Part shown: one piece after another, positions 6,522 through 23,554 of the stretch | Layout: each line of letters starts with the position of its first letter | Position numbering within the stretch: position 1 is the first letter of the stretch | NCBI GenBank assembly: GCA_024280015.1 | Contig: JAJRQY010000155.1 | Coordinates: forward strand, 1-50,555 | DNA from: Actinomycetes bacterium | Lineage (GTDB): Bacteria; Actinomycetota; Acidimicrobiia; Acidimicrobiales; SZUA-35 | Length of the DNA stretch: 50,555 nucleotides | Direction of reading: 5' to 3' | Position numbers and translations under genes: made by a program | Notes under the pieces: model-generated | Database searches by the model: none | Seen by the model: only the letters and a program-made list of their open reading frames with translations | What the model was told of the DNA's origin: nothing

Positions 6522-9500
6522 ATGTTCGAACCCATGGACAGAGAACCAAAACATCCTCTGGAGATCCGGCTGCTCGGCGCGGTCGAGGTCACGGCATCAC
6601 GAAGGGGATCTGAGGGAGAAACCGTGGCCATTGGGGACGTGTCCAGCGCCGTCTCTTGGCTGCCCTTCTCGCGGCTCAGCCCGATGTCGTGTCCATCGAC
6701 CGGCTTGTCGACATCACCTGGGCCGATGAGCCGCCTGCTCGGGCCGAACACAATATCCGCACCTACATCTCTCGGCTACGGACGGTCCTCGGAGCCGAAG
6801 CTACTCTGCAACAAGTCGGTGATGGCTACCGGATCACCCTCCTCGATGCCGGGTGTGATCTCGATCGTTTCGACGAACTGGTCGACGCAGCAGAGCGACT
6901 GCGGGCCGCCGGTTCAACCGCCGACGCCCTCGAAGCTGTACGCCGATCGGAAGAACTATGGCGAGGTCAGCCCTTCGGCGAGTTCGCGTTCGAGCCATGG
7001 GCCCGTGCAGATGTTGCCCGGCTCGAGGAGCGTCATCACATCGCTCGCGAGATCCATGCCGAGCTGCTCCTGCTGGTTGGTCGACCCGCCGACGCCGTCA
7101 CCCGGCTGCAGGCCCTCGTCGCCGAGCACCCCCTTCGGGAGCCACCACGAGCCCTCCTGATGCGGTCTCTTTACGCATGTGGCCGGACCGCCGAAGCACT
7201 TCGAGAGTTCGACGACTTCCGTACAGATCTTCGAGACGAGGTAGGGCTCGCTCCGTCGTCTGAACTCATCGAGCTCGACCATGCCATCGCCAACGGTGAC
7301 CTCGTCGACCACGCGGTGACAGCGAAGGTCGGCGGCTACGCACTGCACGAGCGGATCGGTGCTGGGGCGTTCGCCGTGGTACACCGGGCAACCCAGAAGG
7401 CGCTCAGTCGTGAGGTAGCCGTGAAGATCATTCGGGCCGAGCTGGCGACCCAGCCATCATTCGTTCGGAGCTTCGAGCGCGAGGCTCGAATCGTGGCTCG
7501 ACTTGAACGCGACGCGATCGTCCCCCTGTACGACTTCTGGCGCGACCCGGATCACGCTTACCTTGTCATGCGTTACCTGCCCGGCGGGTCGTTGAGCGAC
7601 CGTCTGGAAGATGGCCCACTGTCGCTCGATGAGGTCGAAGCACTGGTTGAGCGCGTCGGTTCGGCCCTCGTTGCGGCACATGAGGCCGGGGTGATCCATC
7701 GTGACGTGAAGCCTGCAAATATCTTGTTCGATGCCGACGGGCGAGCGGTGCTCGGCGACTTCGGCATCGCCGTCGAAGACAGCACATCCGGCCTTGGCTC
7801 CGAGCCTCAAGCGAGCGAGTCCTCGAATCGCTTTGCCGCTCCCGAACAGCTGCAGGACGAGCGGCCGGGCCCCTCGGTCGACGTCTACTCGCTTGGATTG
7901 GTGGTGTGGTCGGCACTCGCCGGCAGGGTTCCGTTCGCCTCCTCGTCGAGCGATGCGGTGGTAGAGCAGAAGATGGCCGGAGGTGAGGGCCTAGAGCCGA
8001 TCGGTTCGCTTCGCCCAGACCTTCCCGATGCGCTTGTGGAGGTCATCGATGCGGCCACCAATCCCGATCCGAGCCGACGACCTCCATCGATGAAGCGGCT
8101 GGTCGGTCGGATTCGAGCCGCGTCCTCCAGTCCGGTATCGGATCAAGTGGAAAACGGCCCGCAAGCGGTTCGGGAACCCGGCGTCAACCCGTATCAGGGT
8201 CTGCGTTCGTTCGACGAGGCGACATCTCGTCACTTCTATGGGCGGAGTGACCTGGTCGATGAGTTGGTCGACGCGGTGTCGCAGCCCAACGAGCGGCTGC
8301 TAACCGTTGTCGGGGCCTCCGGATCCGGCAAGTCGTCGGTGGTACGGGCCGGCCTGCTCCCCGCCCTTCGCTCAGGAGCCGTGGAGGGGTCCGAGGATTG
8401 GTTCGTCACATCGATGACGCCGGGATCCCACCCATTCGAGGCTTTGGAGACGGCAGTGCTGCGCGTGGCCGTGAATCCTCCCGGCGAACTGCTCACGCAA
8501 CTGACCAGCGGCGACCGAGGACTGATCCGATCGGTCGAGCGCCTGCTACCCGAACGCGACGGCAGCCTCCTGCTCATCATCGACCAATTCGAAGAGCTGT
8601 TCACCAGTACCGATCCAGCGACGGCCAATCGGTTCCTAGATGCCCTGTCGATCGCCTTGACTGAACCGAATGGCAGGTTGCGGGTAGTGGCTACGTTGCG
8701 GGGCGATTTCTACGATCGCCCGCTCCGCCACCTCCGCTTCGCACAACTCCTCAAGGAATCGACTGTGGCCGTCACACCCTTGTCACCCGAAGAGTTGGAG
8801 GCGGTGATCCTCCAACCTGCTCAGTCGGTGGGGGCCGACTTCGAGCCCGGTCTTGTGGCCAGGATCATGTCTGACACCGCCGATCAACCAGGAAGCCTGG
8901 CGTTGCTGGAGTACGCCCTGACCCTGGCCTTTGATCGCAGCGACGGGCGAACGATCACCGCCGCAGACTACTCCAAGATCGGAGGCCTCCAGGGTGCAAT
9001 GGTTGGCCAGGCCGAGCAACTCCACGACAGGCTCGATCCCCAAGGCCGCAACGCGTTGCGACGGGTGATGGGATCGCTGGTTTCCTTGGGAGAAGGGACC
9101 GAAGATACCCGTCGAAGGGCGCTCCGTGCCGAGCTCGGGACATCACCCGAAGTCTCCGAGGTGATCGATTTATTCAGCGCGGCTCGTCTGTTCACCCTGG
9201 ATCACGATCCGGCAACCCGCGCGCCGACCGTGGAAGTCGCGCACGAATCCCTGATCCGCTCGTGGCCCAGGGTTCGGGATTGGCTCGACGAGGACCGCGA
9301 TGGTCTTCGTCTGGAACGCCACCTGTCAGAGGCGGCCCGGGAATGGGACGCAGCCGGGCGACCTGACAGCGAGCTCTATCGGGGAGGTCGGCTCGAAGCG
9401 GCGTCGGAATGGCGAATGCGTTCGAAGAGTGAGCTTGGGCCTGGATCGGATGCGTTCCTCGAGGCGTCTGTCGCCAGGGCCGAAGCAAAGCAGCGGGCAG

Positions 9501-11806
9501 AGACCGAGCGGCTGGAGTCCGAGCAGCAATCGAATCGACGGTTGCGCCGCCTCCTTACAAGCGTCGGCGTCCTGCTGGCGTTCGCTCTGGTAGCGGGAGG
9601 CATTGCATTTCAACAGCGACGCTCGGCAAGAGAAACAGCCTACGACGCAGAGACCAGCCGACTGGTGGCGACGGCGAAGTCACTAGTCGACACCGATTCC
9701 CGGGCAGCGCTCCTGCTGGCCTTAGCAGCTCATCAGCGGGAACGGACGCCCGAAACGCTAGGCGCGCTGCAGGTGGCGTTGACCCGTTCCGGGCCTGGAT
9801 TGGCCACCCTCGGGGATGGCGTTACGTATGTCGATGTGGAGTGGCTCGACAATGGGCTCATCGTCGGGGCTCGTGCTGATGGTCTCGATCTGTTCGATCC
9901 GGCGTCGGGCGAGTTGCTTGACAGTTGGCCCCTGGGGTTCGGCGACAACGGCGAAGGCGATCGCCACCGGATGGCCGCGCTATCTGCGGGTGAGTTCGTG
10001 GTTGCTCACGACACCGTCAGGGTGTCTGTGTTCAGCGCCGACCAGCAGATCCAGGAGCAGCGCAATCTGCCGTTGGCCGAGTCTCCTGTCATAACTGTCT
10101 CCGTTGGACCAGCGGGCCAGATCGTTACCTCCACGTTGGGCGGGGTTCTGACCGCGTATCAAACGGACGGATCCGTCGGGTTCGTGAAACAATTCGATCT
10201 TCCCGCGAACATCGTCGAGCAGGCGATTCCCTTTGTCGGTTCGGAAAGTGAGTTTCTCGAGTTCTTCAGGGCGTTCCCGGTCCTGGTGGTTCCCTTCGCT
10301 GTTCCTCAGGGCATGCTCGTATCGGTCGGTTCAGAACTTCATCGGCTGGACTGGACTGGGGCGGCATTAGCCCGCCCGAGCTTTACTGCGATCGACTTCT
10401 CGGTGACCGCAGGTAGGCCGGTGCCGCCGTTTCTGACTGGCGGCGCGGTCGATGTCTTCGCTGATGGGACGAGACTGCTTGTTCTCGGGGTGAACACGCT
10501 CGTGGACCTCGACTGGAACGACGAATGGGACGATTTGCTTGTCGCCACCTCGATACCGTCGGCGTTCGGAAACGGACAAGCAAACGCCTCTGCAATCCGA
10601 GGCGTTTCAGGCGACGAGGTTCGGGTGGTCAAGAGTGACGGAGAGGTACGCACGGTCAATCTGGTGACCGGCGAAGACTCGCTGGCCGACAACGCTCCCG
10701 CAGCCGCGGCACGGATCTTGTCGGGCGCGCCGGACTCGGCGAACTATGTGTCTGTTGCCGAGTCCGGGCTTCGTGTGATCTCGCCGTTCGGTGCGACCCC
10801 GATTGCGGAGGGTCTCGATCGAGCGTCGACCTCTTCCAACTTGTCGATCTCGCCCGACGGTGATGTCGTCGCCATGGGACCGTCCGGCTATATCGCCCCT
10901 TACGACGTTCGCCAACGGACCAGCTCTGGACGCTTCGAGAAGGTTGTGCTGGGAGAAGAGGACGGCGTCTTTGTCGGGGTCGATCCCGGCAGCGCGACAC
11001 TTCGCACATTCTCTGAGGCTTCCCGAGTGGTCTTCTACTCCCTTGATGGAGGCATCACCGCGTCCTCCACGTGGGATCAATCCCCGGGTGGCAACGTCGG
11101 ACACGAGAGCCAAGATGGCCGGCTGCTCGCTGTGGGATACAACGTGCTCGAGGTCTGGGAGATCGGGGCGGATGCACCGCTCGTTACACGCTCTGCACCT
11201 GACGGCTCCTCCGGTGTTCCCTTGTCGGGGATTCGGTTCGACCCTTCAAGAAACCGTCTTCTGGCAGCGTGGGCGGATGGCCAGTCAATGCTCCTTGACA
11301 CGACCTCGTGGGAACAGATCTCCGTTCCAGCGCTTCAGATGAACGAAACCGCCGTTGGCTTCTGGAGCAGAGACGGTTCGCTCCTGGCAACTGCTTCACC
11401 CGACGGGGTTGTAACAGTCCGACGCGGCGACACCATGGAACCCATCCGGACGCTGGTCGGAAGTCTGGCATTGGGAACGGCCTACTTCGACGGCGGCTTG
11501 CTGTTCTCGACAGACAACCGTCTGCTGCTGACCAACCTGGCGGGGTCCGGGCGGCTGTGGGATATCGAGACGGGCGAGCAGATCGGCGATCCGTTCCCGA
11601 ATCTCAATGGCGTGAACCCTGGAGTCAATGTCGGGACAAATGGCCTGCAGCTAATCACGGGTACCGAGCGGGGCGCGTTGATTTGGAATCTCGACACCGA
11701 CTCGTGGCCCGGCATCGCATGCCAGGTCGTTGACTCAAACCTGAGCGAGCACGAATGGGTTCAGTGGGGGCCTCGCGACGAGCCCTACCGGGAGATCTGT
11801 CCGTAG
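6522..11806 (+). CDS. SARP/BTAD - Ser/Thr kinase - nSTAND NTPase - transmembrane - beta-propeller fusion regulator (frameshift near 6635)
   Basis: Numbered from the in-frame TTG at 6656 (1716 residues): a SARP DNA-binding and BTAD helical domain (1-210); a Ser/Thr kinase (228-485) with glycine loop GAGAFAVV, Lys257, HRDVKPANIL (348-357) and DFG (368-370); an nSTAND1-type NTPase with Walker A GASGSGKSS (553-561) and Walker B LLLIIDQFEEL; one transmembrane segment near 965-985; then a long WD40-like propeller region. The start of the SARP domain (LEIRLLGAVEV) lies upstream in another frame, beginning at ATG 6522 or 6534. Adding one G to the run at 6633-6636 joins the frames and restores VAIGGRVQRRLLAALL, the family pattern, for about 1761 residues. 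It probably senses an extracellular or envelope signal through the propeller and switches the kinase and NTPase. Direct transcription control from a membrane protein is unusual. No SD is seen. Confidence 0.85.
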
Positions 11807-12062
11807 AACAGGACCCGTGACGCTGGACCCTCAGCGGGGTTCGACGGGGGCTCGGACTCGGGGCCCTCGCCGACTCGGGGGTTGCGCCGTCGTTGTTCTC
11901 GCGTGTTGCCTCAGTTGCTACGGCTAGCCTCCCGAGTGTCCGCACCGTTACGTGCTGGAGGCCCGATGCAGAGAAAAGTCCATCAGATTGGGATAGGCAC
12001 CCGTGTGGAACAACAAGAGCCGCCACCGGGATGTTTATCCTGGTCAGCGACTCTGTTTGTGA
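11807..12062. other. Gene-free region between the giant regulator and the first att copy
   Basis: No coding frame with recognisable features was seen. The right part (about 11996-12062) is similar to sequence before the second att copy at 19981 and carries one GGCACCC motif (11996-12002) and a hairpin. It therefore belongs to the island end rather than to the core. Confidence 0.5.
12016..12054 (-). terminator. Hairpin next to att copy 1 (minus-strand terminator-like)
   Basis: Read on the minus strand, AGAGTCGC (12054-12047) can pair with GCGGCTCT (12023-12016), using one G-U pair, and is followed by a T-rich TTGTTG. It sits just 3' of the tRNA-like fragment. The same arrangement occurs at 19933-19972, so each integrated unit seems to supply a terminator to the tRNA half it replaces. 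Confidence 0.4.
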
Positions 12063-12105
12063 GTACGCCCTCCGGGACTTGAACCCGGAACCTGCGGATT
12101 AAGAG
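12063..12105 (-). repeat. att copy 1: 3' half of tRNA-Lys (distal end of the island)
   Basis: The 43 bases match 23481-23523 of the intact tRNA-Lys gene at 42 positions and stop inside the anticodon loop, after which the sequences differ. There is no 5' half here, so this is not a tRNA gene. It marks the far boundary of tRNA-targeted integration. Confidence 0.8.
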
Positions 12106-12259: not shown

Positions 12260-13129
12260 CTAGTCGAGGTCACCGACGAGTTGCTCGACCATCCAGCGAT
12301 CCCCGGGGCTGCATCTCGACACGGATAGTTCGGTTGCGTCAAGGTCGGTGAGGAATGCGAACCGCCTGCGAGTCGCAAGTTCCCACCCTTCGATGTCAAC
12401 CGGCGTCGTGAGATAGCCGATGTCTTCTTCGTTGAATTCGTCTTCAGAGCGCTCACGAAGCAATTCCTCAGGTTCGAAAGGGCGATCTCCCAGCCCGTCA
12501 TCGACGACATCGTGCCATATCTTCATCACCGTCAACCTGCGGACGATTGGCTCGTTCATTGGGCCACCGCGGGCGAACCAGGCAAGGTCATAAAGGTCGC
12601 GGGCAAGACTTGCGCGGCGATACCGGGCGAGTTTTTCGGACAACACTTCCTCGACTCGCATAACCGGTATCTGGGGGATAGTGATGTCGTAGTGAGCATG
12701 AATCGGCAGCTCTATGGGGGAGAGGAGCTGCGCCTTGAGCCACGACTTCTTTGGTGAACAGTCGATTCGGGCCGGTAATTCGGGGACGTCAAAAGGAGTC
12801 TCGATGTGCAGAGTCGATCGTCGGTGCTCGTTGATTGGTTCGACTCGGAAGGCGAAGCCTCCCAACCTCGCGCCGTCAAGAGTTTCAAGGAGAAGTTCTG
12901 CAACCGGCTGATCTGTATCGGAGAAGTCCAGGTCAGTGGAGAACCGGCCGGAGCTTCCTGCTCGATACTTTCGGAGGGCGGTGCCGCCCTTGAAGACGAC
13001 TCCAAGATCGAAGATTCCAGCCTCACTGATGATGGCAAGGGCGTGGTCTTGGGCGATGTCGATGAGGGCCGGACCGCGACCGCCCTTCCTTCCTTGGTAG
13101 TGGCGGCCGAGGTGTCCTTCAGTAATCAT
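12260..13129 (-). CDS. AbiEii/AbiGii-type nucleotidyltransferase toxin (type IV TA)
   Basis: The 289-residue protein has the nucleotidyltransferase signature of AbiEii: FKGGTALRKY (residues 46-55) followed by GRFSTDLDF with Asp66 and Asp68 as metal ligands. Further on comes the helix KLARYRRASLARDLYDLAW (about 165-183) common to this family. AbiEii enzymes transfer nucleotides to RNA targets (tRNA in the related MenA toxins) and stop growth on phage infection or loss of the antitoxin. The length and all key residues look intact. Its ATG overlaps the end of the upstream AbiEi gene by four bases (ATGA), the usual coupled order. A decayed copy of part of this gene lies at 22386-22556. Confidence 0.9.
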   Translation of the reverse strand: MITEGHLGRHYQGRKGGRGPALIDIAQDHALAIISEAGIFDLGVVFKGGTALRKYRAGSSGRFSTDLDFSDTDQPVAELLLETLDGARLGGFAFRVEPINEHRRSTLHIETPFDVPELPARIDCSPKKSWLKAQLLSPIELPIHAHYDITIPQIPVMRVEEVLSEKLARYRRASLARDLYDLAWFARGGPMNEPIVRRLTVMKIWHDVVDDGLGDRPFEPEELLRERSEDEFNEEDIGYLTTPVDIEGWELATRRRFAFLTDLDATELSVSRCSPGDRWMVEQLVGDLD

Positions 13130-13914
13130 GTCTGGAAGTCGATCAGAGCTGAGTCAATCACATCGAACTGGCTGCTGTATCGACCTCGTTGCCTACGTCG
13201 GCCGAGGTAGTAAGGGCCCTGGCCAGGTGGGGCATCTGATTTGAGGGCACTGGCGAGATCGGAATTTCCTCCGCGATCCAAAAGGTATGCCAGCCTCATC
13301 CATGTTGAGCGAGGCTTGCCTGCTAGCTCTGCCCGAAGGTCATTCTCGGAAACTTCTTTGGCGGCCTGGGCTAACCAATCACCCACGTTGGGCCAGTCGT
13401 GGTAACTGGCGGGGCGATGGCTCATCGCTACAAGCAGCGTCGGCACCTGCCATATGGGAAGCCCGTTTCGGTCCTTGACGTCGAGTGCCGGAATGAAACG
13501 GACGACTCGGTACTCACTCAGAGCTGGAGGAAGTCGAAGGCCTGGAGGTGCAGAAATCACATGCCGGTTTGGCGACCGGGTAGAGAGGCCTAGAAGCCAA
13601 GCGGCAGACTCGGCTGCAAGTTCGACGGGAAGGTCGGGCCGCTTCCGGAGTGTGGCTCTTAGTTCTATGTGGGGATCCCCGGCGTCGATCGCGCCAGCTC
13701 GCGCAGCGGGTGCGAATTCCCAATAGCCACGAGTGCGCAGAGGAAGGAGCCATCCTCCATTCGTGAGTTCTTCGACCAGGTACCGAATTGTCGTCTTGGA
13801 CTCTGTGATGACTATGGCGCGCTTCAGGTCCCCGCTGCTGACAACCAGGGGTTGGTCAAGTTCGAGTTGTTCGAGTACGGCGGCGACCGCAGGGGGAATG
13901 GTTCGCACTGTCAT
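13126..13914 (-). CDS. AbiEi-type antitoxin / autorepressor
   Basis: The 262-residue protein has an N-terminal winged-helix region (about 10-70, SSGDLKRAIVITESKTTIRY), then an AbiEi-like middle segment (ELAAESAAWLLGL) and a C-terminal domain ending near the toxin start. AbiEi proteins repress their own operon and counter the toxin without a stable protein complex (type IV logic). It overlaps the toxin gene by four bases. TACACT at 13921-13916 on the minus strand lies only one base before the ATG but seven bases before the GTG of codon 3 (13908-13906), so the true start may be that GTG on a leaderless message. Confidence 0.85.
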   Translation of the reverse strand: MTVRTIPPAVAAVLEQLELDQPLVVSSGDLKRAIVITESKTTIRYLVEELTNGGWLLPLRTRGYWEFAPAARAGAIDAGDPHIELRATLRKRPDLPVELAAESAAWLLGLSTRSPNRHVISAPPGLRLPPALSEYRVVRFIPALDVKDRNGLPIWQVPTLLVAMSHRPASYHDWPNVGDWLAQAAKEVSENDLRAELAGKPRSTWMRLAYLLDRGGNSDLASALKSDAPPGQGPYYLGRRRQRGRYSSQFDVIDSALIDFQT

Positions 13915-13915
13915 T

Positions 13916-13955
13916 AGTGTACAGCAATATCTGCGGAACGCAGAAGATGCTGCGG
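13916..13955 (-). promoter_or_regulatory. Promoter and operator candidate of the abiEi-abiEii operon
   Basis: The minus strand has a TACACT -10-like element (13921-13916). Just upstream are the small palindrome CTGCG-GAA-CGCAG (13931-13943) and a second CTGCGG at 13950-13955, giving a direct repeat of CTGCGG 19 bases apart. AbiEi proteins are known to bind repeats in their own promoter; the link here is inference. Confidence 0.35.
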
Positions 13956-14132
13956 TAAATCGACAGTTGTAATGCGTCGGTGGTCACCGAGAGTAGTTCA
14001 AGTCGTAAGTCGTTCAATGAAGTCTGTCCTCATAAGGAACTGGAGAATCACAACGTCGAACCCAGCCGCGAGGTGACAACGAGTTGGCCGATGGGCTGAG
14101 TCGGCTGGTCTAGCTGTGGCCGAGTCTCGGTC
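13956..14132. other. Gene-free gap between two AbiE loci
   Basis: No credible coding frame. The minus strand can be read in frame past the TGA of the toxin relic at 14133, but it shows none of the nucleotidyltransferase motifs. The rest of that toxin is therefore gone rather than merely interrupted. Confidence 0.45.
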
Positions 14133-14219
14133 TCACACGATGAGGTGATCTCGAATGATTCCGTCATCGGGTGCGCCGAACGTGGCGGCAGCTGTTTCGA
14201 TCTCGAATCGGTCGATCAT
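14133..14219 (-). pseudogene. N-terminal relic of a second AbiEii-type toxin
   Basis: Overlapping the end of the 14216-14848 antitoxin by four bases (ATGA) is a 28-codon frame. It begins MIDRFEIETAAATFGAP, runs through IIRDHLIV and ends at TGA. That resembles the first helices of AbiEii toxins, which commonly read FEIE...RFG...RRDHLI before the catalytic GGT motif. The catalytic part is absent, so no toxin can be made here. The call rests on recall of family N-termini and on the typical antitoxin-toxin overlap. Confidence 0.5.
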
Positions 14220-14848
14220 GAATTAGCTCGACCTAACGAACCCCGGAGTCGGTGCAGTGTTTTGACTCCGCGTGTGGACATTGCAACCTGGTCAATGAGG
14301 TCCCAGTCGATTCGGTCGGCTAGCCGGTGGACCATTTCGGTGCGGGCTTCCTCGGTGAGGTTCCATGCTGGCCGGTTGCGACATAAGTCCAGTGCTGTCT
14401 GTTCGGGACTTGTGGCCCAGCCCGGCCCGAGGTCGGTCTCGATGCGCACGGTGTCCATCTTGGTCATGTCTCGTGTGACGAATCGAACTTCGCCGAGCAC
14501 GGTGTTTCGGTGACGATGTTGCTTTGGGACAGCGATATAGGCAGACCCGAGGGATCGAGGATAGCAACGGTGGGAACGGGCGGCGGAGGGCCCGATGAGA
14601 GCAACTTCGTTTGCTCCGTAGATGGCCGCAGCAATGCCAAGAGCGACGCCCTCGATAGTTGGTCGCCAGTGGGTGCCGGCGCCTCGGCGGTCTTCTGGAA
14701 TCAAGGCGTAGAAGCCTTTGGTGAGGAGCAGGACTGTTCCTTGTTCAGCTAGTCGACGTAGCTCAGCGTCGGGTCTGTCGAGTTTGAATGAGTTTGTGCG
14801 TGCGACGGTGATTTGGCGGCGGGCCAGTTGCTCAGGAATGCTTGCCAC
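14216..14848 (-). CDS. Second AbiEi-type antitoxin, now without a functional toxin
   Basis: The 210-residue protein looks like the shorter AbiEi form. It has an N-terminal winged helix (ELRRLAEQGTVLLLTKGFYAL, described here in parts: a DNA-binding turn followed by the beta wing around residues 30-50), then GVALGIAAAIYG, LIGPSAARSH, and the domain end ATSPEQTALDLC. The start is GTG at 14848-14846. TACAAT lies six bases upstream with no Shine-Dalgarno, so the message is probably leaderless. A large double palindrome at 14859-14896 abuts this promoter. The downstream toxin is only a relic (14133-14219). An orphan antitoxin may still repress its promoter or cross-protect against related toxins; that is inference. 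Confidence 0.75.
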   Translation of the reverse strand: MASIPEQLARRQITVARTNSFKLDRPDAELRRLAEQGTVLLLTKGFYALIPEDRRGAGTHWRPTIEGVALGIAAAIYGANEVALIGPSAARSHRCYPRSLGSAYIAVPKQHRHRNTVLGEVRFVTRDMTKMDTVRIETDLGPGWATSPEQTALDLCRNRPAWNLTEEARTEMVHRLADRIDWDLIDQVAMSTRGVKTLHRLRGSLGRANS

Positions 14849-14854
14849 GGACGG

Positions 14855-14896
14855 ATTGTATGCGTTAACGCGGGTCCAGAACCGCGTTAACGCATA
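14855..14896 (-). promoter_or_regulatory. Double-palindrome operator over a leaderless promoter of the second abiEi gene
   Basis: Two 15-base arms, 14859-14873 and 14882-14896, are perfect inverted repeats around an eight-base spacer. Each arm contains the ten-base palindrome GCGTTAACGC (14862-14871 and 14884-14893), so the two palindrome centres are 22 bases (two helical turns) apart. On the minus strand TACAAT (14860-14855) overlaps the end of the inner arm and is followed after six bases by the GTG start. A protein bound here would block RNA polymerase. AbiEi binding is the obvious inference. Confidence 0.75.
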
Positions 14897-15013
14897 GAAA
14901 CGTAACAGAATAGGGAAACCATAGGTACTTACATATCGGTCCTGCTGGGCTTGGTTGGGTCGTAGTCTCGGATCAGAAGCAGTAGTTGATCCGGGGTCCG
15001 GTGCAGTTCGTGG

Positions 15014-15715
15014 TCAAGTCTGGCCGAGCGAACCCGCCAACTTCTGATGCAGTTGGATGAATAGCTTCGCGTCATCGCGTGAGAAGCCAGTCGTTGTCTC
15101 CCAGTCGATGGTTGAACCGAGAGGCGACATGAAGCACGTTTCGGCAGCCACCAAGGAGCGGCGCCAATCGGCAACGGTCAAAGGTTCATTGAACCTCAGT
15201 GTCTCGCGGAGTCGGTAGCCCTGATTGAAGAGGTCTGCGACGTTCTTGAAACCCATCTCTTGAGCCAGGTCATCGGTGCAGTGCGCTGGGCCACCCCAAT
15301 CGAGAATTCCTGCTCGCAACAGGTCTCGTTCTCGCGAGGTGAGATTGATTGCGACTCGCTTACCGGCATCTTCGGTTGGCGGGACCTCAGTTATAGTTCC
15401 GCTGCCGACGATCGACCCGTACCAAACGTCGAACGTCGCCCCGACAGTCGCGTGCCGGGAAGCGAGTTCAGCCCAGAAGTGGATGGAGACGTTCGTCGCC
15501 TCTTGTGCTCGCCCCTCGTCAGCTATATCGACAATGACTCCTTCGAAGTTGGCAGCATTGTCTCCCGGTTGGATGGAGCCAAAGCAGTAATGAAAACTCT
15601 GGTCCCCAACTTGTAGTTCCGGAACTTCCATTTGGTGCTCATTGACGGCCTCATCGAGGCGGATTGCGGCCACAGCGATGTGCCCTGCTGGGCCATAGAC
15701 CACTTCCTCCGTCAT
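15014..15715 (-). CDS. Unrecognised 233-residue protein coupled to an AbiEi antitoxin
   Basis: The ATG at 15715 is preferred over the TTG at 15739 because GAAGGG lies seven bases before it. The N-terminal half reads as a beta-rich domain (PAGHIAVAAIRLDEAV, VGDQSFHYCFGSIQPG, FDVWYGSIVGSGTITEV). The C-terminal half is helical (LTSRERDLLRAGILDWGG, FIQLHQKLAGSLGQT). No nucleotidyltransferase motif, membrane segment or signal peptide is seen. The ATG overlaps the stop of a 17-codon toxin-like relic by four bases, and that relic overlaps the AbiEi stop. The gene thus sits exactly where a type IV toxin is expected. It could be a replacement toxin, a different effector or an unrelated cargo gene. The family was not recognised. 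Confidence 0.65.
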   Translation of the reverse strand: MTEEVVYGPAGHIAVAAIRLDEAVNEHQMEVPELQVGDQSFHYCFGSIQPGDNAANFEGVIVDIADEGRAQEATNVSIHFWAELASRHATVGATFDVWYGSIVGSGTITEVPPTEDAGKRVAINLTSRERDLLRAGILDWGGPAHCTDDLAQEMGFKNVADLFNQGYRLRETLRFNEPLTVADWRRSLVAAETCFMSPLGSTIDWETTTGFSRDDAKLFIQLHQKLAGSLGQT

Positions 15716-15765
15716 TGATATGCCCTTCGCTGTCGCCAATGGGCGAGGTCAGCCTCGGTGGTCAC
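15712..15765 (-). pseudogene. 17-codon N-terminal relic of an AbiEii-type toxin
   Basis: Starting at GTG 15765, which overlaps the AbiEi stop, the frame reads VTTEADLAHWRQRRAYQ and stops at TGA 15714-15712. AbiEii toxins next to this AbiEi type often begin with a similar helix containing a W followed by basic residues. What remains is too short to act, but it could serve as a coupling leader for the following gene, whose ATG overlaps this stop. Confidence 0.3.
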
Positions 15766-16565
15766 AGGTCGTGCTCAATTTCGGTATTGACAATCACATG
15801 CCAGCGGGGGTCACGCTCACCGGGGCCACTCCCAGGGGCGAGATCTCGATAGCGAGCCCCTGTCACGACTTCGTGGAGCTGGTTAGTGTTGATCTGTTGA
15901 TCAACCTCGGTGGCCATGTAGTCCAGCAAGAATCCAGTCCGTTGCACCACAGCGATCGGATAGAGCTTGGCGACATCTGACAGGACGCTCAGGTCCAGCA
16001 CCTCGTCATAGAGCAGATCACCAATGACAGTCGCCACATTCGAGAGTCCGGCCCCGTACTCGGGTGACTCAACAAGATCAAGGACCGTTACCTCTGGGGC
16101 GGAGACCCACATTCGTCCTGTCGGCACGGTGTGCCGTTGTTTGGGTTTCTCGGTGGTGCCAGAGCGTTGCAGAAACTGGATCCGGTTACGGCCGATCCTG
16201 CGTTCACGTAGTTTGGCTGGCGTGACGATCTGGAAGACCATTGACGCTTGATGCGACGCGCCGTGGATGGCGGCTGCCGACAAGAATCCCACGTAGTAGG
16301 AATGCCCGAGGTGGCCCATTAACGGGTCGATGAAGTGGCTGGCCGGGGGAGCCCCAACGCTTCGGTACTCGGGAGGGACCGGAACCCAGCCTTCCTTGGT
16401 CACCGAGATCATCTTTCCGGCTTGGCGAGACCGCTCCAAGCTTATGGGCACTGTCTCTGGGGTGATAGCAAGTAGGGCAGCGACGTCGCTGGTGGAGATG
16501 AAGTGTTGGCCGCGTCCGATCAGCCAATCGGCAAGCTCAATCGGAGCGATCTTTGTTTCGATCAT
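15762..16565 (-). CDS. Third AbiEi-type antitoxin
   Basis: The 267-residue protein from ATG 16565 is the long AbiEi form. Its winged helix is near 15-60 (STSDVAALLAITPETVPISL). The middle contains YYVGFLSAAAIHGASHQ, and the tail DPRWHVIVNTEIEHDL matches the hallmark C-terminus of this antitoxin family. The longer frame from 16631 adds residues that look non-coding. TACTCT lies seven bases before the ATG on the minus strand, again suggesting a leaderless message. The gene downstream, overlapping through a toxin relic, is not a nucleotidyltransferase but a 233-residue protein of unknown type. As an antitoxin it should repress its own promoter and neutralise or pre-empt its partner's effect. Confidence 0.8.
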   Translation of the reverse strand: MIETKIAPIELADWLIGRGQHFISTSDVAALLAITPETVPISLERSRQAGKMISVTKEGWVPVPPEYRSVGAPPASHFIDPLMGHLGHSYYVGFLSAAAIHGASHQASMVFQIVTPAKLRERRIGRNRIQFLQRSGTTEKPKQRHTVPTGRMWVSAPEVTVLDLVESPEYGAGLSNVATVIGDLLYDEVLDLSVLSDVAKLYPIAVVQRTGFLLDYMATEVDQQINTNQLHEVVTGARYRDLAPGSGPGERDPRWHVIVNTEIEHDL

Positions 16566-16829
16566 GCCGTCTAGAGTATCAAAACAGTAGCCTTGTGTCG
16601 AGGTTTGACCCTCGGGACGGCAACTACTCAAATTCGCGAGTTGATTGAGGCTGCCCGAGACACCTTGTCAGAGGAAGCCCATGTTCGCCTCATATGAGTC
16701 CTAAGTGGGCTCCGACTGATTAAGGGTTTGAGGAGGTCACGGCTCCAAGAACTATTCCGTTCAATCGCTCCGACGGCCAAAAGCACCTAACTCGGGCAGC
16801 CAATGGGGATATGTGGCTGGGACATGTCA

Positions 16830-17177: not shown

Positions 17178-18548
17178 TTAGGCTGAAGGTAGCGCTGCGA
17201 TTCTGGCAGGTGATGGCCAGTAGCCTTTGCTCTGCGCGTACTGGGCGGCTTCGGGATGTTCATTGAATTCAAGAAGGTTTCCGACCTTCTCAACCAGTAC
17301 TTCCCGAACTTCGTTTGGCGTGGCGAAGAAGAATTCTCTCCGCAGGTTGACATGGTTGACCCTCTGGACAGCGAAGGCACGATGCAGCTCACTCTCTAGA
17401 GTCACCGCATCTTCAGAGAAGAACAGAGCGTGCACATCAAATGGGAATGGAACTGACGCGTCGCCAAGTTCTCGCACGCGATCCATTGGTTCCAGTCGTC
17501 GAGTCATCCCGATCTTGATAATTTGGCCACCAAACGCACCCTTGTTGGAGATGACATAGACGTAGCCAGCACGGACGTTCGCAGTCCGGTAGTCGTTCTG
17601 CTCGATAGCACTATTGAGATCGCCAAGTTTTTCAGCGATCTCGGCCGCACCTGCTTCATCACCTGCTGTCTGCAACGCTTCGAGGGCATTCTGGAGATGG
17701 CTGCGTTCCTTGGCTAGACGTTCACGTTCGGCTTTCAATTCTTGTTCGACCTTGCGCTCTTCGCGAAGCCGGGCTCGCTCTTCTCGTGCCGCTTCCTTCT
17801 CTTCCTGTTTCTTCATCGCGAAGTCCGAGGCGAGTTCGATCTCGCGAACACGCAGAGCGTGATACTCGGGGTTGATGCGCATCTCCATCATTGTCCCAAG
17901 CTTTGCAATAGTCGTCACTGTGCGTTCAAGGCGCTTCTTGGCGGTTACCGAATTTCCAGCCCGTAGTGACCTGACGCAAGTATCGGCCTCAGAGTTGTAC
18001 GCCCTCAACATGAGTTTCGAGAGGTCCTTGGTCATCTTGCGTCCCTTGGCCAGGGAGTTGTTGAAGGTAAACATTTCCGAGGCAAGAACGGCGCTACCTT
18101 CCTTGATCGAGGCTTTGATCTCGTCGTTCAAAGCGGCCAGCTGATCCTTGAATTGCGCCGCATTCTCTAGCGGGTGGTGATATCGGTAGATTCCTACTTC
18201 TTGAAGAATGCGCTCGTCGTCTAGGTCGACGACATCGATCGAACTGGCCCCGGCAGATTGAGTCGTTTCTGACAACTGCTGTTTCAGATCAGCCAACTCG
18301 GTCTGGAGTTGTGCAATGAGTTGGTCGCGTTGGTCTGGGGGTGTGTTAGTCGAAGCACTCTCGCTGTCCCTAGACAGTGTTGGAGCTTGGGGCGGGCGGG
18401 GTGCTTGCGGCTCAAGTGTCCAGAGTTCCCAATCTGTCGGCGCAGGTGGCCAGGTCGAGTCAGGTCTCCAGCCCTCTGGAGGCACAAATCCTTCTGGTAC
18501 CGGCCAGAGTGGCGGCGGATTGAACCGATACCCACTGGATGCGTTCAC
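17178..18548 (-). CDS. DUF4041-type coiled-coil protein with C-terminal GIY-YIG (T5orf172) nuclease domain
   Basis: The 456-residue protein begins with a Trp/Pro-rich segment (FNPPPLWPVPEG, PEGWRPDSTWPPAP; 9-43), a short coiled coil (75-98) and a DUF4041-like helical region (about 108-235). A long charged coiled coil (245-325) follows, then a GIY-YIG nuclease fold: GYVYV (328-332), KIGMT (345-349), Arg358, Glu385 in ESELH, and NLRREFF near 405. The start is GTG, overlapping the upstream gene by four bases (GTGA), so the two are co-translated. DUF4041/GIY-YIG proteins are common in phage and defence islands, and membrane-associated relatives have been reported to cut incoming phage DNA. This one has no transmembrane segment, so anchoring would need its N-terminus or its partner. 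The nuclease call is firm; the antiphage role is inference. Confidence 0.85.
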   Translation of the reverse strand: MNASSGYRFNPPPLWPVPEGFVPPEGWRPDSTWPPAPTDWELWTLEPQAPRPPQAPTLSRDSESASTNTPPDQRDQLIAQLQTELADLKQQLSETTQSAGASSIDVVDLDDERILQEVGIYRYHHPLENAAQFKDQLAALNDEIKASIKEGSAVLASEMFTFNNSLAKGRKMTKDLSKLMLRAYNSEADTCVRSLRAGNSVTAKKRLERTVTTIAKLGTMMEMRINPEYHALRVREIELASDFAMKKQEEKEAAREERARLREERKVEQELKAERERLAKERSHLQNALEALQTAGDEAGAAEIAEKLGDLNSAIEQNDYRTANVRAGYVYVISNKGAFGGQIIKIGMTRRLEPMDRVRELGDASVPFPFDVHALFFSEDAVTLESELHRAFAVQRVNHVNLRREFFFATPNEVREVLVEKVGNLLEFNEHPEAAQYAQSKGYWPSPARIAALPSA

Positions 18549-19813
18549 AGAGATCGGACTCCCTGGGACGTATCTATTCCAACGAGGCCGAACGGATCTT
18601 TGGACACCTGGGCACCCAAGTGCTTCAAGGTTGCCAACGGCACGACATTGGACAAATCGATTGCCATGAACGATTCTCGGGCCGCTGCGACAGTGATGAA
18701 TGCTATGGACTCTGGTTTCCCTGTTGCCGGGTTTGTTGCCCCGGTGGCAATCGTTAGTGAAATGGTCTGGATGATTGCTTGACGGTCGGCTTCGAAGACT
18801 TCATGAAGGCTTCGAAGTGCCACTGCGTGAACTGCCCCGGAGTATCTATCTTTCTGTGCCTTGGCGCTCAGAGTCGTAGCAGTAATCTCGTCCTTGGACT
18901 TCACGTACTTGAAAGCCTTCTCGATTGACATCGTGCTCGGAGCAGGTACCCATGCGGTAATCTCCAGCTCAGCGAGTTCGGCATCGAACCTGAACGCTGT
19001 CTCGACTTCGAAGAAGCTTGGGTAGACAGAGTTTGACAAGACGATTCCGATGTACTCGTTGACCGCCGTCTCCGTTCCGGTTGTGAGGTCGATTATGAGT
19101 TCGTCGAGTTCTTTGTTCGCTGCGCTGATCTCGGTTTCTCGTTGCTGACACTCTTGGTCATATGTCTGTTGCGCCAAGCTGAGATCGGAGATTCGTCTTG
19201 CCTCCAACGCCTTGAATTGTTCGGCCTGTTCCTGGTCGAATCTTTGATGGGCACCTGTCTGGACTTGCCACGCTTGGTGGAGTTCAGCGAAATCTGTTTG
19301 GGCTTTCGCTGTGGCCTTGGCTAAGCGTCCCTTCCCTCCGACGAGCGATCCGATGCCCTTGACCGCGTCTGGAGGTGCGTAGGTTGGCTCGGGCGGCAGT
19401 GGTCTTGGGATCGGTGGAGCTGTTGGTTGAAGGAGATCAGGTCTTGGAAAGGGCGGATGCTCCGCGGCTTGACGAAGAGAGTTGGGATCTACGTAGTCGT
19501 CAATGTCTAGTGTCGCTGAGAGTATTGAGTCGATTTCGTCGTACTCGGCGGTCAGTCCTGCGGTCCTGGACTCGGCTTCGAGGCTCCGCATCTCCTCGTA
19601 AGCGAGCTTCGCGGCCTTCTCTGCTGCCTTCTGGTCTTGAACCGCTGCCTTCTGTGCAGCCGCTCTTGCCCGGTCTGCTTGTTTTCTGGCTGTTTCCGCA
19701 TCGCGTTCGGCTGTTGCCTTTGCTTTTGCCGCTGTTCTCTGTGCTTGTTGATTGCGTTTTTCTGCTTGCTTGATCTGACGGTTCACCTCGGCCAGGAATC
19801 CACGCTTTGCCAC
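18545..19813 (-). CDS. Coiled-coil protein of unknown function, partner of the DUF4041/GIY-YIG nuclease
   Basis: The GTG at 19813 is chosen because AGGAG lies seven bases before it and upstream residues look non-coding. The 422-residue product has an Ala/Lys/Gln-rich coiled coil (about 5-80), an acidic segment (LDIDDYVDPNSL) and a Pro-rich linker (PPFPRPDLLQPTAPPIPRP). Then come a glycine patch, a second coiled coil (about 165-240) and a compact C-terminal domain (260-415; FRFDAELAELEITAWVPAP, FKYVKSKDEI, TLKHLGAQVSKDPFGL). No signal peptide, membrane segment or catalytic motif is seen. It is the first gene of a two-gene operon and overlaps the nuclease gene by four bases. A scaffold or sensor role is a guess from the coiled coils and the strict coupling. 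The family was not recognised. Confidence 0.75.
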   Translation of the reverse strand: MAKRGFLAEVNRQIKQAEKRNQQAQRTAAKAKATAERDAETARKQADRARAAAQKAAVQDQKAAEKAAKLAYEEMRSLEAESRTAGLTAEYDEIDSILSATLDIDDYVDPNSLRQAAEHPPFPRPDLLQPTAPPIPRPLPPEPTYAPPDAVKGIGSLVGGKGRLAKATAKAQTDFAELHQAWQVQTGAHQRFDQEQAEQFKALEARRISDLSLAQQTYDQECQQRETEISAANKELDELIIDLTTGTETAVNEYIGIVLSNSVYPSFFEVETAFRFDAELAELEITAWVPAPSTMSIEKAFKYVKSKDEITATTLSAKAQKDRYSGAVHAVALRSLHEVFEADRQAIIQTISLTIATGATNPATGKPESIAFITVAAARESFMAIDLSNVVPLATLKHLGAQVSKDPFGLVGIDTSQGVRSL

Positions 19814-19900: not shown

Positions 19901-19919
19901 GGCACCCGTTTTGGCACCT
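19901..19919. promoter_or_regulatory. Paired integrase arm-site-like repeats, left of att copy 2
   Basis: GGCACCC at 19901-19907 and GGCACCT at 19913-19919 are direct repeats 12 bases apart. Read on the other strand they are GGTGCC-type motifs, as seen in arm sites of some actinobacteriophage integrases. A matching pair lies right of the att copy. Confidence 0.4.
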
Positions 19920-19932
19920 GTGGGGAACAACA

Positions 19933-19972
19933 AGAGCCGCTAACGGGGACGTTTGCCCTGGTCAGCGACTCT
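19933..19972 (-). terminator. Hairpin next to att copy 2 (minus-strand terminator-like)
   Basis: AGAGTCGCTGA (19972-19962, minus strand) pairs with TTAGCGGCTCT (19943-19933) through G-U wobbles, and TTGTTG follows. Its position just 3' of a tRNA-Lys half suggests it once terminated that tRNA transcript. It closely matches the copy at 12016-12054. Confidence 0.45.
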
Positions 19973-19980
19973 GTTCGTAA

Positions 19981-20025
19981 GTACGCCCCCGGGACTTGAA
20001 CTCGGAACCTGCGGATTATGAGTCC
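19981..20025 (-). repeat. att copy 2: 3' half of tRNA-Lys between the two island units
   Basis: The 45 bases match the 3' part of the intact tRNA-Lys gene from 23481, with one C missing from a C run and two substitutions. The similarity extends left for about 55 bases into sequence shared with att copy 1. It marks the junction of two tandem integrations. Confidence 0.75.
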
Positions 20026-20400: not shown

Positions 20401-20667
20401 ATGCGACCGATCCAGACAAGTAGAGCGTTCGGGTCCGCGGTTAGGCGGGCCCGTAAGGACCAGGGCCTGTCTCAAGTTGAGCTTGCTGCTCTCGCCGGTG
20501 TGGGGCGGCCCTGGCTATCCGAACTCGAGACAGGAAAACGCACTGTCGAGCTGGGCCGAGCATTGTCAGTCCTGAGTGCCCTCGACGTTGCTATCACCTT
20601 CGTTCCTGTTCCCGGCCCGAATGGGTCGACTGTCGATCTCGGCCAGATCATCGACGAGGGTATCTGA
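20401..20667 (+). CDS. hipB: HipB-like helix-turn-helix antitoxin
   Basis: The 88-residue protein carries one Cro/CI-type HTH over most of its length (FGSAVRRARKDQGLSQVELA, then RPWLSELETGKR), as in HipB. HipB holds the HipA kinase inactive and represses the operon. AGAGGA lies five to ten bases before the ATG. Its TGA overlaps the hipA ATG by one base (TGATG), so the two are coupled in the usual antitoxin-first order. The length is normal for HipB. Confidence 0.9.
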   Translation: MRPIQTSRAFGSAVRRARKDQGLSQVELAALAGVGRPWLSELETGKRTVELGRALSVLSALDVAITFVPVPGPNGSTVDLGQIIDEGI

Positions 20668-21971
20668 TGGCGTCTGATGAGTTGATTGTTCTGCTCGAAG
20701 GGCAGCCGATCGGCATGATTGAACGTCTGTCAAGCAGTGCTCTTCGTCTTCGCTATAACAATGAGTACCGAGACAACCCCACAGCGACCCTGCTGTCAGT
20801 GTCGATGCCGCCAAGCCAGGAAGTGCATAGCAATGCTCGACTCACACCATGGTTGTGGGGTCTGTTGCCCGACAATGCCGATGTGCTCGCCCGCTGGGGT
20901 CGTGAGTTCGGTGTTTCGGTGGCGTCACCGTTCCCGTTACTCAGTACCCATATCGGCTATGACTGTGCCGGAGCCGTGCAATTCTGCCTGCCCGACCAAG
21001 TCGATGATTTAATTGGTCGGTCCGGCGATATCTCATGGCTCAACCAGGCCGATATCGCTTCACGATTGAGGGCGCTTCGAACGGACTCGACTAGCTGGCT
21101 CGGTCCCGGATTTACTGGCCAGTTCAGCCTCGGCGGAGCGCAAGCGAAGATTGCGCTTCACCGTGTTGATGGGGACCCTGGAGAGCGAGGAACGTGGGGG
21201 GAGCCGGTCAGCGGGTTCGCAACGACGCACATCCTTAAACCCGCGGTGGCTGGGTTTGAGGCGCAGAACATCAACGAGCACTTATGTCTTGCAGCGGCCC
21301 GAGCGCTTGGTCTGCCAGCTGCCAACACTTGGATCGAGATGTTTGAAGAGGAGAGTGCAATCGTTGTCGAGCGGTTTGACCGTTCGCGTAGGAGCGGAGC
21401 GCTGGTCAGAGTTCATCAAGAGGATCTCTGTCAGGCCCTTTCGGTTCCCCCCGTCGGTAAGTATCAGTCTGATGGGGGGCCGAGGCCTGGCCAGATTGCA
21501 GAGCTGATCAGGTCGATTATCCCTGGCCCTGATGCCGAGATCGACGTGAGGCGATTCGCTGATGCTTTGGCATTTAACTGGCTTATCGCAGGTACTGATG
21601 CCCACGCCAAGAACTATGGCTTGTTGCTCGCTGGCAGCCAGATTAGGTTGGCACCGCTGTATGACGTCGCATCGATTCTGCCTTATGACGACAGTGACGG
21701 TCATAAGGTGAAGCTGGCTATGAAAGTCGGCGATGACTACAAGTTGCGCCGGACCGATCGTCGTAGGGCGTGGGAGCAAGCAGCGGATGAACTGAAACTC
21801 GATCGTGCCCGGCTGATCACTCGTGTGCTCGACTTGGCCGAGCGCTTGCCTGCGGCGTTCGTTCAGGCAGCGACCGGTGTTGACGTTGGTGCTCTCTCGA
21901 CGGATTTGCCCGAGCGGTTGGTGGCGCTTGTGTCGCGCCGGAGCGAGCTCTGTCGGGCAGCTTTGAGCTGA
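20667..21971 (+). CDS. hipA: HipA-like serine/threonine kinase toxin
   Basis: The 434-residue protein has the N-terminal HipA subdomain (about 1-110) and the kinase core. QFSLGGAQAKIAL contains Ser154, equivalent to the autophosphorylated serine near the P-loop of E. coli HipA. GTDAHAKNYG (309-318) has the catalytic Asp311, and APLYDV has the metal-binding Asp333. HipA phosphorylates aminoacyl-tRNA synthetases, notably GltX, halting translation and producing dormancy. All active residues appear present, so the toxin should be functional. It forms an operon with hipB and lies between two att repeats, fitting a role in stabilising the island or in defence. Confidence 0.92.
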   Translation: MASDELIVLLEGQPIGMIERLSSSALRLRYNNEYRDNPTATLLSVSMPPSQEVHSNARLTPWLWGLLPDNADVLARWGREFGVSVASPFPLLSTHIGYDCAGAVQFCLPDQVDDLIGRSGDISWLNQADIASRLRALRTDSTSWLGPGFTGQFSLGGAQAKIALHRVDGDPGERGTWGEPVSGFATTHILKPAVAGFEAQNINEHLCLAAARALGLPAANTWIEMFEEESAIVVERFDRSRRSGALVRVHQEDLCQALSVPPVGKYQSDGGPRPGQIAELIRSIIPGPDAEIDVRRFADALAFNWLIAGTDAHAKNYGLLLAGSQIRLAPLYDVASILPYDDSDGHKVKLAMKVGDDYKLRRTDRRRAWEQAADELKLDRARLITRVLDLAERLPAAFVQAATGVDVGALSTDLPERLVALVSRRSELCRAALS

Positions 21972-22385: not shown

Positions 22386-22556
22386 CCAGGCAAGGTCATA
22401 GAGATCACGGGCGAGGCTCGCCCGGCGATACCGGGCGAGTTTCTCAGACAACACCTCCTCGGTCCGCATGACCGGAATCTCAGGGGTCCTGATGTCGTAA
22501 TGAGCATGAACTGGCAGATCTATGGAGGGGAGGAGTTGTGGCTTGAGCCATGACTT
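22386..22556 (-). pseudogene. Internal fragment of an AbiEii-type toxin gene
   Basis: The minus strand encodes 57 residues, from KSWLKPQLLPSIDLPVHAHY through IPVMRTEEVLSEKLARYRRA to RDLYDLAW. They align without gaps to residues in the second half of the first AbiEii toxin (12260-13129). About four of five DNA bases agree by eye. There is no start, no catalytic GGT/DLD part and no end. It is a decayed paralogue, showing that this toxin was once also present in the second island unit. Confidence 0.85.
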
Positions 22557-22680
22557 CGACTCTGCCGCCGATCGATGGAGCCTTCCCGAAGTCGCATCGT
22601 GAGCGGTGGCTGGAGATGGCCCGACTGGTGCTTGAGATGGTGGACGGAGGGGAAGAGGAGAGCGAAATCAGCTCTCCAGA
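22550..22680 (+). other. Possible 5' fragment of a small gene, cut by the transposase remnant
   Basis: From ATG 22550 the plus strand reads MTSTLPPIDGAFPKSHRERW, then a helix and an acidic stretch (EMVDGGEEESE) before entering the transposase fragment. It has the amphipathic look of a small coding region and could have been truncated when the insertion sequence arrived. The evidence is weak. Confidence 0.2.
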
Positions 22681-23474: not shown

Positions 23475-23480
23475 TTGTTC

Positions 23481-23523
23481 GTACGCCCCCCGGGACTTGA
23501 ACCCGGAACCTGCGGATTAAGAG
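23481..23523 (-). repeat. att copy 3 (inside the intact tRNA-Lys gene)
   Basis: This is the 3' half of the tRNA gene that recurs at 12063-12105 and 19981-20025. Integration at this site keeps the tRNA whole because the element supplies the same 3' half. Confidence 0.75.
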
Positions 23524-23554
23524 TCCGTCGCTCTACCAATTGAGCTAGAGGCGC
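23482..23554 (-). tRNA. tRNA-Lys (CTT), integration target
   Basis: The 73-base cloverleaf has acceptor GCGCCTC pairing with GGGGCGT through G-U pairs, and a D-arm GCTC/GAGC. The anticodon loop is CTCTTAA with anticodon CTT, and the T-arm is CCGGG-TTCAAGT-CCCGG. CCA is not encoded. The outer pair of the anticodon stem is an A-C mismatch, which may reflect exchange of the 3' half by integrating elements. Confidence 0.93.

What the first reader, a model, noticed from the sequence alone, without database searches (positions are those of the whole stretch)
17178..19813. Two-gene operon: unknown coiled-coil protein plus DUF4041/GIY-YIG nuclease in a defence-rich island
The genes overlap by GTGA, so they are co-translated. 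The second has an intact GIY-YIG core (GYVYV, KIGMT, Arg358, Glu385) after DUF4041-like helices. The first (422 residues, two coiled coils, Pro-rich linker and a compact C-terminal domain) matches no family I know. Related DUF4041/GIY-YIG proteins are reported to cut incoming phage DNA at the membrane, but this one has no membrane segment and instead has a Trp/Pro-rich N-terminus and a strictly coupled partner. It could be a two-component variant in which the partner provides localisation or sensing.
Basis: partly seen in the sequence, partly recalled or inferred. Interest (0 to 1): 0.75.

Follow-up and report, generated by a model that had tools for sequence, protein, structure and literature searches.

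The report
Two-gene SNIPE variant with dedicated partner
This is a two-gene version of the recently described bacterial anti-virus DNA-cutting enzyme SNIPE: all sampled members of one branch of that family, spread over at least six bacterial phyla, come with a second protein that resembles the front half of another DNA-cutting enzyme but lacks its cutting part, so target finding and cutting may be split between two proteins.

Summary
The downstream gene is a SNIPE / PD-Lambda-1 nuclease (DUF4041 + GIY-YIG; PADLOC E=7e-109), with Glu385 matching catalytic E414 of E. coli SNIPE and no transmembrane segment. The upstream 422-residue protein matches, over almost its full length, the N-terminal module of Mrr-type restriction endonucleases (PADLOC mREase_IV, E=1e-31) but lacks the Mrr nuclease domain. 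The pair is a real unit. In a partner-anchored scan, 79 of 80 loci in at least six phyla have SNIPE directly downstream, usually with a 4-base overlap; one is an in-frame fusion. In an independent, DUF4041-anchored Actinomycetota sample, 7 of 37 SNIPE genes have the partner. These 7 form one clade (100/97) in which every sampled member has it; none of the 30 outside do. The partner's own tree separates SNIPE-linked from Mrr-fused forms on one branch (100/100): one change of nuclease. The W/P-rich N-terminus also occurs in 13 of 30 partnerless SNIPEs, so it is not partner-specific. I infer an obligate complex in which the partner supplies recognition or activation and SNIPE supplies cleavage. 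New variant of a known system; no function was tested.

The parts
18545..19813 (-). Partner gene, 422 aa, GTG start; nuclease-less homologue of the N-terminal module of Mrr-type restriction endonucleases
   Evidence: (PADLOC mREase_IV E=9.5e-32)
19529..19798 (-). Partner helix/coiled coil 1 (residues 6-95)
   Evidence: AlphaFold2 model
19079..19336 (-). Partner helix/coiled coil 2 (residues 160-245), after a Pro-rich linker
18566..19075 (-). Partner C-terminal alpha/beta domain (residues 247-416), shared with Mrr-fused relatives; invariant P265, R334, E338, D343, G365, F382
   Evidence: no confident PDB fold
18545..18548 (-). GTGA overlap: stop TGA of partner and start GTG of SNIPE
   Evidence: 61 of 82 tabulated pairs overlap by 4 bases
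17178..18548 (-). SNIPE/PD-Lambda-1-type nuclease, 456 aa
18411..18530 (-). Trp/Pro-rich N-terminal segment of SNIPE (residues 7-46)
   Evidence: also in partnerless SNIPEs and before a TM helix in another protein
17850..18017 (-). DUF4041 core (residues 178-233)
   Evidence: Pfam PF13250 E=2e-21
17295..17567 (-). GIY-YIG (T5orf172) domain, residues 328-418; Glu385 = E414 of E. coli SNIPE
19974..20022 (-). Copy of the tRNA-Lys 3' half, attachment-site-like, upstream of the operon
   Evidence: direct repeat family D2
12057..12105 (-). Second tRNA-Lys 3' half copy at the far end of the island segment
23481..23554 (-). Intact tRNA-Lys(CTT), presumed integration target
   Evidence: ARAGORN; repeat

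Best explanation
The locus is a two-subunit SNIPE-type anti-phage nuclease. Shown by sequence: (1) the second subunit is a SNIPE nuclease with an intact GIY-YIG core and no membrane anchor; (2) the first subunit is a nuclease-less homologue of the N-terminal module of Mrr-type restriction endonucleases; (3) the two are translationally coupled, inherited together, occasionally fused, and define one SNIPE clade, separated by one change of nuclease from the Mrr-fused form of the same module. Inferred: the partner's coiled coils and C-terminal domain form an obligate complex with SNIPE and supply recognition and activation (of incoming phage DNA or an injection-associated protein) that the Mrr-fused relatives carry in cis. 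On recognition, the GIY-YIG domain held on the DUF4041 DNA-binding helices cuts the phage DNA. Without the target the complex stays inactive, which would solve the self-toxicity that an unanchored E. coli SNIPE shows.
For: SNIPE identity: PADLOC PD-Lambda-1 E=7e-109, DUF4041 + GIY-YIG, and Glu385 aligned to the catalytic E414 of the E. coli protein whose residues match the published numbering (PMC13190303). Partner homology: mREase_IV E=9.5e-32; distant relatives are single ORFs carrying Mrr_cat directly after the module with the nuclease core intact. Unit: 79 of 80 partner loci have SNIPE immediately downstream; 61 of 82 pairs overlap by 4 bases and there is one in-frame fusion, L077, 810 aa; distance matrices correlate at Mantel r=0.86, permutation maximum 0.11. 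Independently anchored sample: 7 of 37 DUF4041 loci have the partner, all 7 in one clade (100/97), 0 of 30 outside. One switch between nuclease types (100/100). Unanchored SNIPE is toxic in E. coli and DUF4041 binds DNA (PMC13190303).
Against: No function was tested, and no complex could be co-folded here. The partner's C-terminal domain has no confident solved-structure match, so 'recognition' rests on swap logic alone. PADLOC's type IV label for the Mrr relatives is an annotation, not a tested specificity. Solitary TM-less SNIPEs exist (30 of 37 sampled Actinomycetota loci have no partner), so a partner is not generally needed to restrain an anchor-less SNIPE.
Confidence: 0.5

Rival explanations
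1. The partner is a localisation subunit: its long coiled coils tether SNIPE to the membrane or to an envelope complex, replacing the transmembrane helix, and SNIPE then cuts DNA during injection exactly as in E. coli.
For: The partnered SNIPE has no TM. Other SNIPE N-termini are thought to be diverse membrane addresses (PMC13190303). A W/P-rich segment like the one here precedes a TM helix in another actinobacterial protein.
Against: The partner has no TM segment. Its homologues are Mrr nucleases. The W/P segment, the better candidate for an address, is on SNIPE and occurs without the partner.
Confidence: 0.22
2. The partner is an inhibitor: it holds the anchor-less, intrinsically toxic SNIPE inactive and releases it when infection is sensed, as in a toxin-antitoxin-like pair.
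For: E. coli SNIPE without its TM is highly toxic (PMC13190303). The partner is translated first and tightly coupled. No sampled member of the clade lacks the partner. One orphan partner exists (L085).
Against: A natural in-frame fusion exists, which does not suit a labile dissociating antitoxin, though it allows cis-inhibition. The Mrr-fused homologues indicate a role beyond blocking SNIPE.
Confidence: 0.18
3. The two genes are separate defence genes that merely sit together in a defence region.
For: The region carries other defence and TA genes (AbiE, HipBA), and PADLOC scores the two proteins as different systems.
Against: Strict adjacency and order in 79 of 80 loci across at least six phyla, overlap, fusion, co-divergence and 1:1 match to one SNIPE clade.
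Confidence: 0.03

Closest known systems
SNIPE (PD-Lambda-1), E. coli; Saxton et al. 2026, PMC13190303
   Same: DUF4041 helices followed by a GIY-YIG domain; catalytic Glu (E414 = E385) and flanking motifs conserved.
   Different: No TM segment; W/P-rich N-terminus; encoded directly after a dedicated partner protein. In the main text of the SNIPE paper the words operon, upstream and partner lead to no such gene; its supplements could not be read.
Mrr_cat restriction endonucleases with the same N-terminal module (PADLOC mREase_IV PDLC03663; e.g. L003, L125, Agrobacterium and Methylobacterium plasmid 'restriction endonuclease')
   Same: Two long helical segments plus the C-terminal alpha/beta domain, about 21-31% identity, invariant R334, E338, D343, G365, F382.
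   Different: Those proteins carry a PD-(D/E)XK Mrr nuclease in the same chain and no SNIPE was found beside them; the partner ends where the nuclease would begin.
Solitary actinobacterial SNIPEs with DUF2510-like or W/P N-termini (L098, L100, L111, L163)
   Same: Same nuclease family, TM-less, some with the same W/P segment.
   Different: No partner; they fall outside the partnered clade.

Membership tests
SNIPE / PD-Lambda-1 | DUF4041 domain | tested here: met
   PF13250 E=2e-21, 76 bits against cut-off 27
SNIPE / PD-Lambda-1 | GIY-YIG nuclease domain with catalytic Glu | tested here: met
   T5orf172 E=1e-13; E385 aligned to E414
SNIPE / PD-Lambda-1 | Membrane anchor (common, not universal and so not strictly defining: 66% of homologues have a predicted TM) | tested here: not met
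   Max hydropathy 0.87. Not disqualifying: 34% of homologues lack a TM (PMC13190303)
SNIPE / PD-Lambda-1 | Cuts phage DNA during injection, direct defence | not testable with these tools
   Needs infection experiments
Mrr-type (putative type IV) restriction endonuclease | Shared N-terminal module | tested here: met
   mREase_IV E=9.5e-32 over residues 20-413; tree and HMM
Mrr-type (putative type IV) restriction endonuclease | Mrr_cat PD-(D/E)XK nuclease domain | tested here: not met
   No Pfam nuclease hit in the partner; protein ends at the module's end. So it is not itself an Mrr enzyme
Toxin-antitoxin pair | Partner neutralises a toxic second gene | not testable with these tools
   Needs expression tests

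The most novel reading that the evidence does not exclude
One recognition module works with two unrelated nuclease folds: fused in cis to a PD-(D/E)XK Mrr domain in restriction enzymes, and in trans with a GIY-YIG SNIPE here. A SNIPE lineage would thereby have changed from an anchored injection-site nuclease into a two-subunit restriction-like complex whose self/non-self decision is made by the partner rather than by membrane confinement.
Probability: 0.35. Interest if true: 0.75.

Novelty: new variant of a known kind. Interest (0 to 1): 0.6.

Why it matters
SNIPE was described as a single gene that tells self from non-self by sitting at the membrane. A widespread, single-origin clade that instead always carries a partner related to a restriction-enzyme module gives a direct test of how an unanchored SNIPE avoids cutting its own chromosome. 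It also shows that annotation pipelines split one system in two: PADLOC matches the two genes to different systems, one of them a 'type IV restriction enzyme' that has no nuclease domain.

Tried and rejected
W/P-rich segment as a docking peptide for the partner: first suggested by its near-invariance in partnered SNIPEs and its loss in the fusion; rejected because 13 of 30 partnerless SNIPEs carry it and two partnered ones lack it (L064, L099). Known fold for the partner's C-terminal domain: PDB sequence search gave only coiled-coil noise. Foldseek best E was 2.5e-3 for the whole model and 2.8e-3 for the domain alone. VIA-align best was CamS (sex pheromone precursor) at Z 7.2 and 8.1, within the range the tool gives for common arrangements; no functional inference drawn. 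Viral structure library: nothing below E=0.001. Partner in phages: no tblastn match, while solitary SNIPEs do occur in phage records. The search for related loci set alone is biased, because its query was built from SNIPE-linked partners; so a DUF4041-anchored sample was added.

Full report
Check of the observation. The downstream protein (456 aa) carries DUF4041 at residues 178-233 and a GIY-YIG/T5orf172 domain at 328-418 and scores as PADLOC PD-Lambda-1 at E=7e-109, the system now called SNIPE (PMC13190303). A protein annotated PD-lambda-1 in Escherichia phage PhiR26_1 (L116, 500 aa) carries the residues named in the SNIPE paper at the same numbers (E223, N250, L253, W257, K305, I308, T319, E414). 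Aligned to it, the window's Glu385 is the catalytic E414. Neither protein has a membrane-like segment.

What the partner is. Pfam and NCBIfam find nothing significant, but PADLOC's mREase_IV profile matches residues 20-413 at 9.5e-32, and only to its first 380 of 544 positions. The reason is visible in relatives. L003 from the same taxonomic family is one ORF with this module followed by Mrr_cat (Pfam E=6e-15), and so are plasmid, viral-contig and other Actinomycetota relatives, most with a recognisable Dx(n)QxKR nuclease core. The partner ends where that nuclease begins. In a sample of 396 Actinomycetota genomes the module appeared in 19. Two copies lay next to SNIPE and most of the others were fused to Mrr_cat (at least 11); the rest were fragments or unclear. 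AlphaFold2 (67 sequences, mean pLDDT 92.5) gives two long helices, a Pro-rich linker and a C-terminal alpha/beta domain; the domain alone gives pLDDT 94.9. Structure searches give no confident match. Six residues (P265, R334, E338, D343, G365, F382) are invariant across SNIPE-linked and Mrr-fused members in the alignments.

Is the pair a unit? A scan of GTDB species genomes with partner sequences kept 80 loci, in Actinomycetota, Pseudomonadota (alpha and gamma), Thermodesulfobacteriota, Verrucomicrobiota, Planctomycetota, Gemmatimonadota and others. In 79, SNIPE follows immediately on the same strand; L085 is an orphan partner. Of 82 tabulated pairs 61 overlap by exactly four bases and most others lie within a few bases. 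L077 is an in-frame partner-SNIPE fusion. Pairwise distances of 74 partner-SNIPE pairs correlate with r=0.86, against at most 0.11 in 1000 permutations. Because that scan was anchored on SNIPE-linked partners, I took a second sample anchored on DUF4041 only. Of 37 loci examined, 7 have the partner. In a tree with further relatives the partnered SNIPEs are one side of one branch (100/97), with every sampled clade member partnered and none of the 30 others. A wider tree of 100 SNIPEs gives the same result (SH-aLRT 98; 1 change against 18.5 in shuffles). The module's own tree separates SNIPE-linked from Mrr-fused forms on one branch (100/100). The simplest history is one change of nuclease, followed by horizontal spread of the two genes together. 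The direction is not proven: midpoint rooting puts the SNIPE-linked clade inside the Mrr-fused group, with weak support.

The W/P-rich N-terminus. It is nearly invariant in partnered SNIPEs and tempting as a docking element. But it occurs in 13 of 30 partnerless SNIPEs, it precedes a TM helix in an unrelated actinobacterial protein (L146), and it is missing from two partnered SNIPEs and from the fusion. I regard it as a SNIPE address of unknown target, not as the partner interface.

Surroundings. Copies of the tRNA-Lys 3' half lie at 12057-12105 and 19974-20022, and the intact tRNA-Lys(CTT) is at 23481-23554. So the operon sits at one end of a 7.9-kb segment bounded by attachment-like repeats. 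AbiE-type toxin-antitoxin genes lie in the same segment (12260-16631) and a HipBA-like pair in the next (20401-21971). The host is an uncultured actinobacterium; its family-level relative G007 is the same contig as an Acidimicrobiales MAG (same 190,676-base contig and place).

Mechanism. Shown: identity of both proteins, coupling, co-inheritance, a single change of nuclease. Inferred: an obligate complex; partner as recognition/activation subunit; DUF4041 as DNA-binding arm; GIY-YIG as cutter. The SNIPE paper shows that DUF4041 binds DNA and that an unanchored SNIPE is toxic, so an anchor-less SNIPE needs some restraint. The partner could provide it by gating cleavage (favoured), by localisation, or by inhibition. 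Solitary TM-less SNIPEs in Actinomycetota show that other solutions exist, which limits this argument.

Comparison and novelty. It is a member of the SNIPE family by both tested domain criteria, with a new obligate component. The partner is not a member of the Mrr enzymes, because the defining nuclease domain is absent. In the main text of the SNIPE paper the words operon, upstream and partner lead to no such partner gene, and only three papers in the held library mention DUF4041. The supplements were not readable, so prior notice in a supplementary table cannot be excluded. Verdict: new variant of a known kind, interest 0.6.

Noticed in passing
window 12000-12105, 19917-20022, 23475-23554: Three tRNA-Lys(CTT) 3'-half copies, one the intact tRNA; the first two also share about 60 bases outside the tRNA part. 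Looks like two integrated islands in tandem at one tRNA gene.
   Followed up: partly
window 12578-12749 and 22386-22557: 172-base direct repeat at 83% identity; the first copy lies in an AbiEii gene, so the second is probably a remnant of another AbiE system.
   Followed up: no
window 12260-16631: AbiEii and three AbiEi-like proteins (12260-13129, 13126-13914, 14216-14848, 15762-16631) plus an unassigned 241-aa ORF (15014-15739): more antitoxins than toxins.
   Followed up: no
window 6656-11806: 1716-residue ORF with an AfsR/SARP-like N-terminus followed by a Ser/Thr kinase domain; scores with PD-T4-6 and MAD6 kinases but is more like a regulator.
   Followed up: no
L100 and L125 (genome G262): A genome with a partnerless W/P-type SNIPE and, 3.5 Mb away, the Mrr-fused protein that scored highest of the Mrr-fused ones against the partner profile.
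   Followed up: partly
L146 1399-2208: The same W/P-rich motif in front of a TM helix in an actinobacterial membrane protein, suggesting a general address or binding segment that Pfam did not name.
   Followed up: partly
window SNIPE residue 204 (Lys): Aligns with E223 of E. coli SNIPE, where E223K was among the mutations that raised defence against phage Bas14 (PMC13190303).
   Followed up: no
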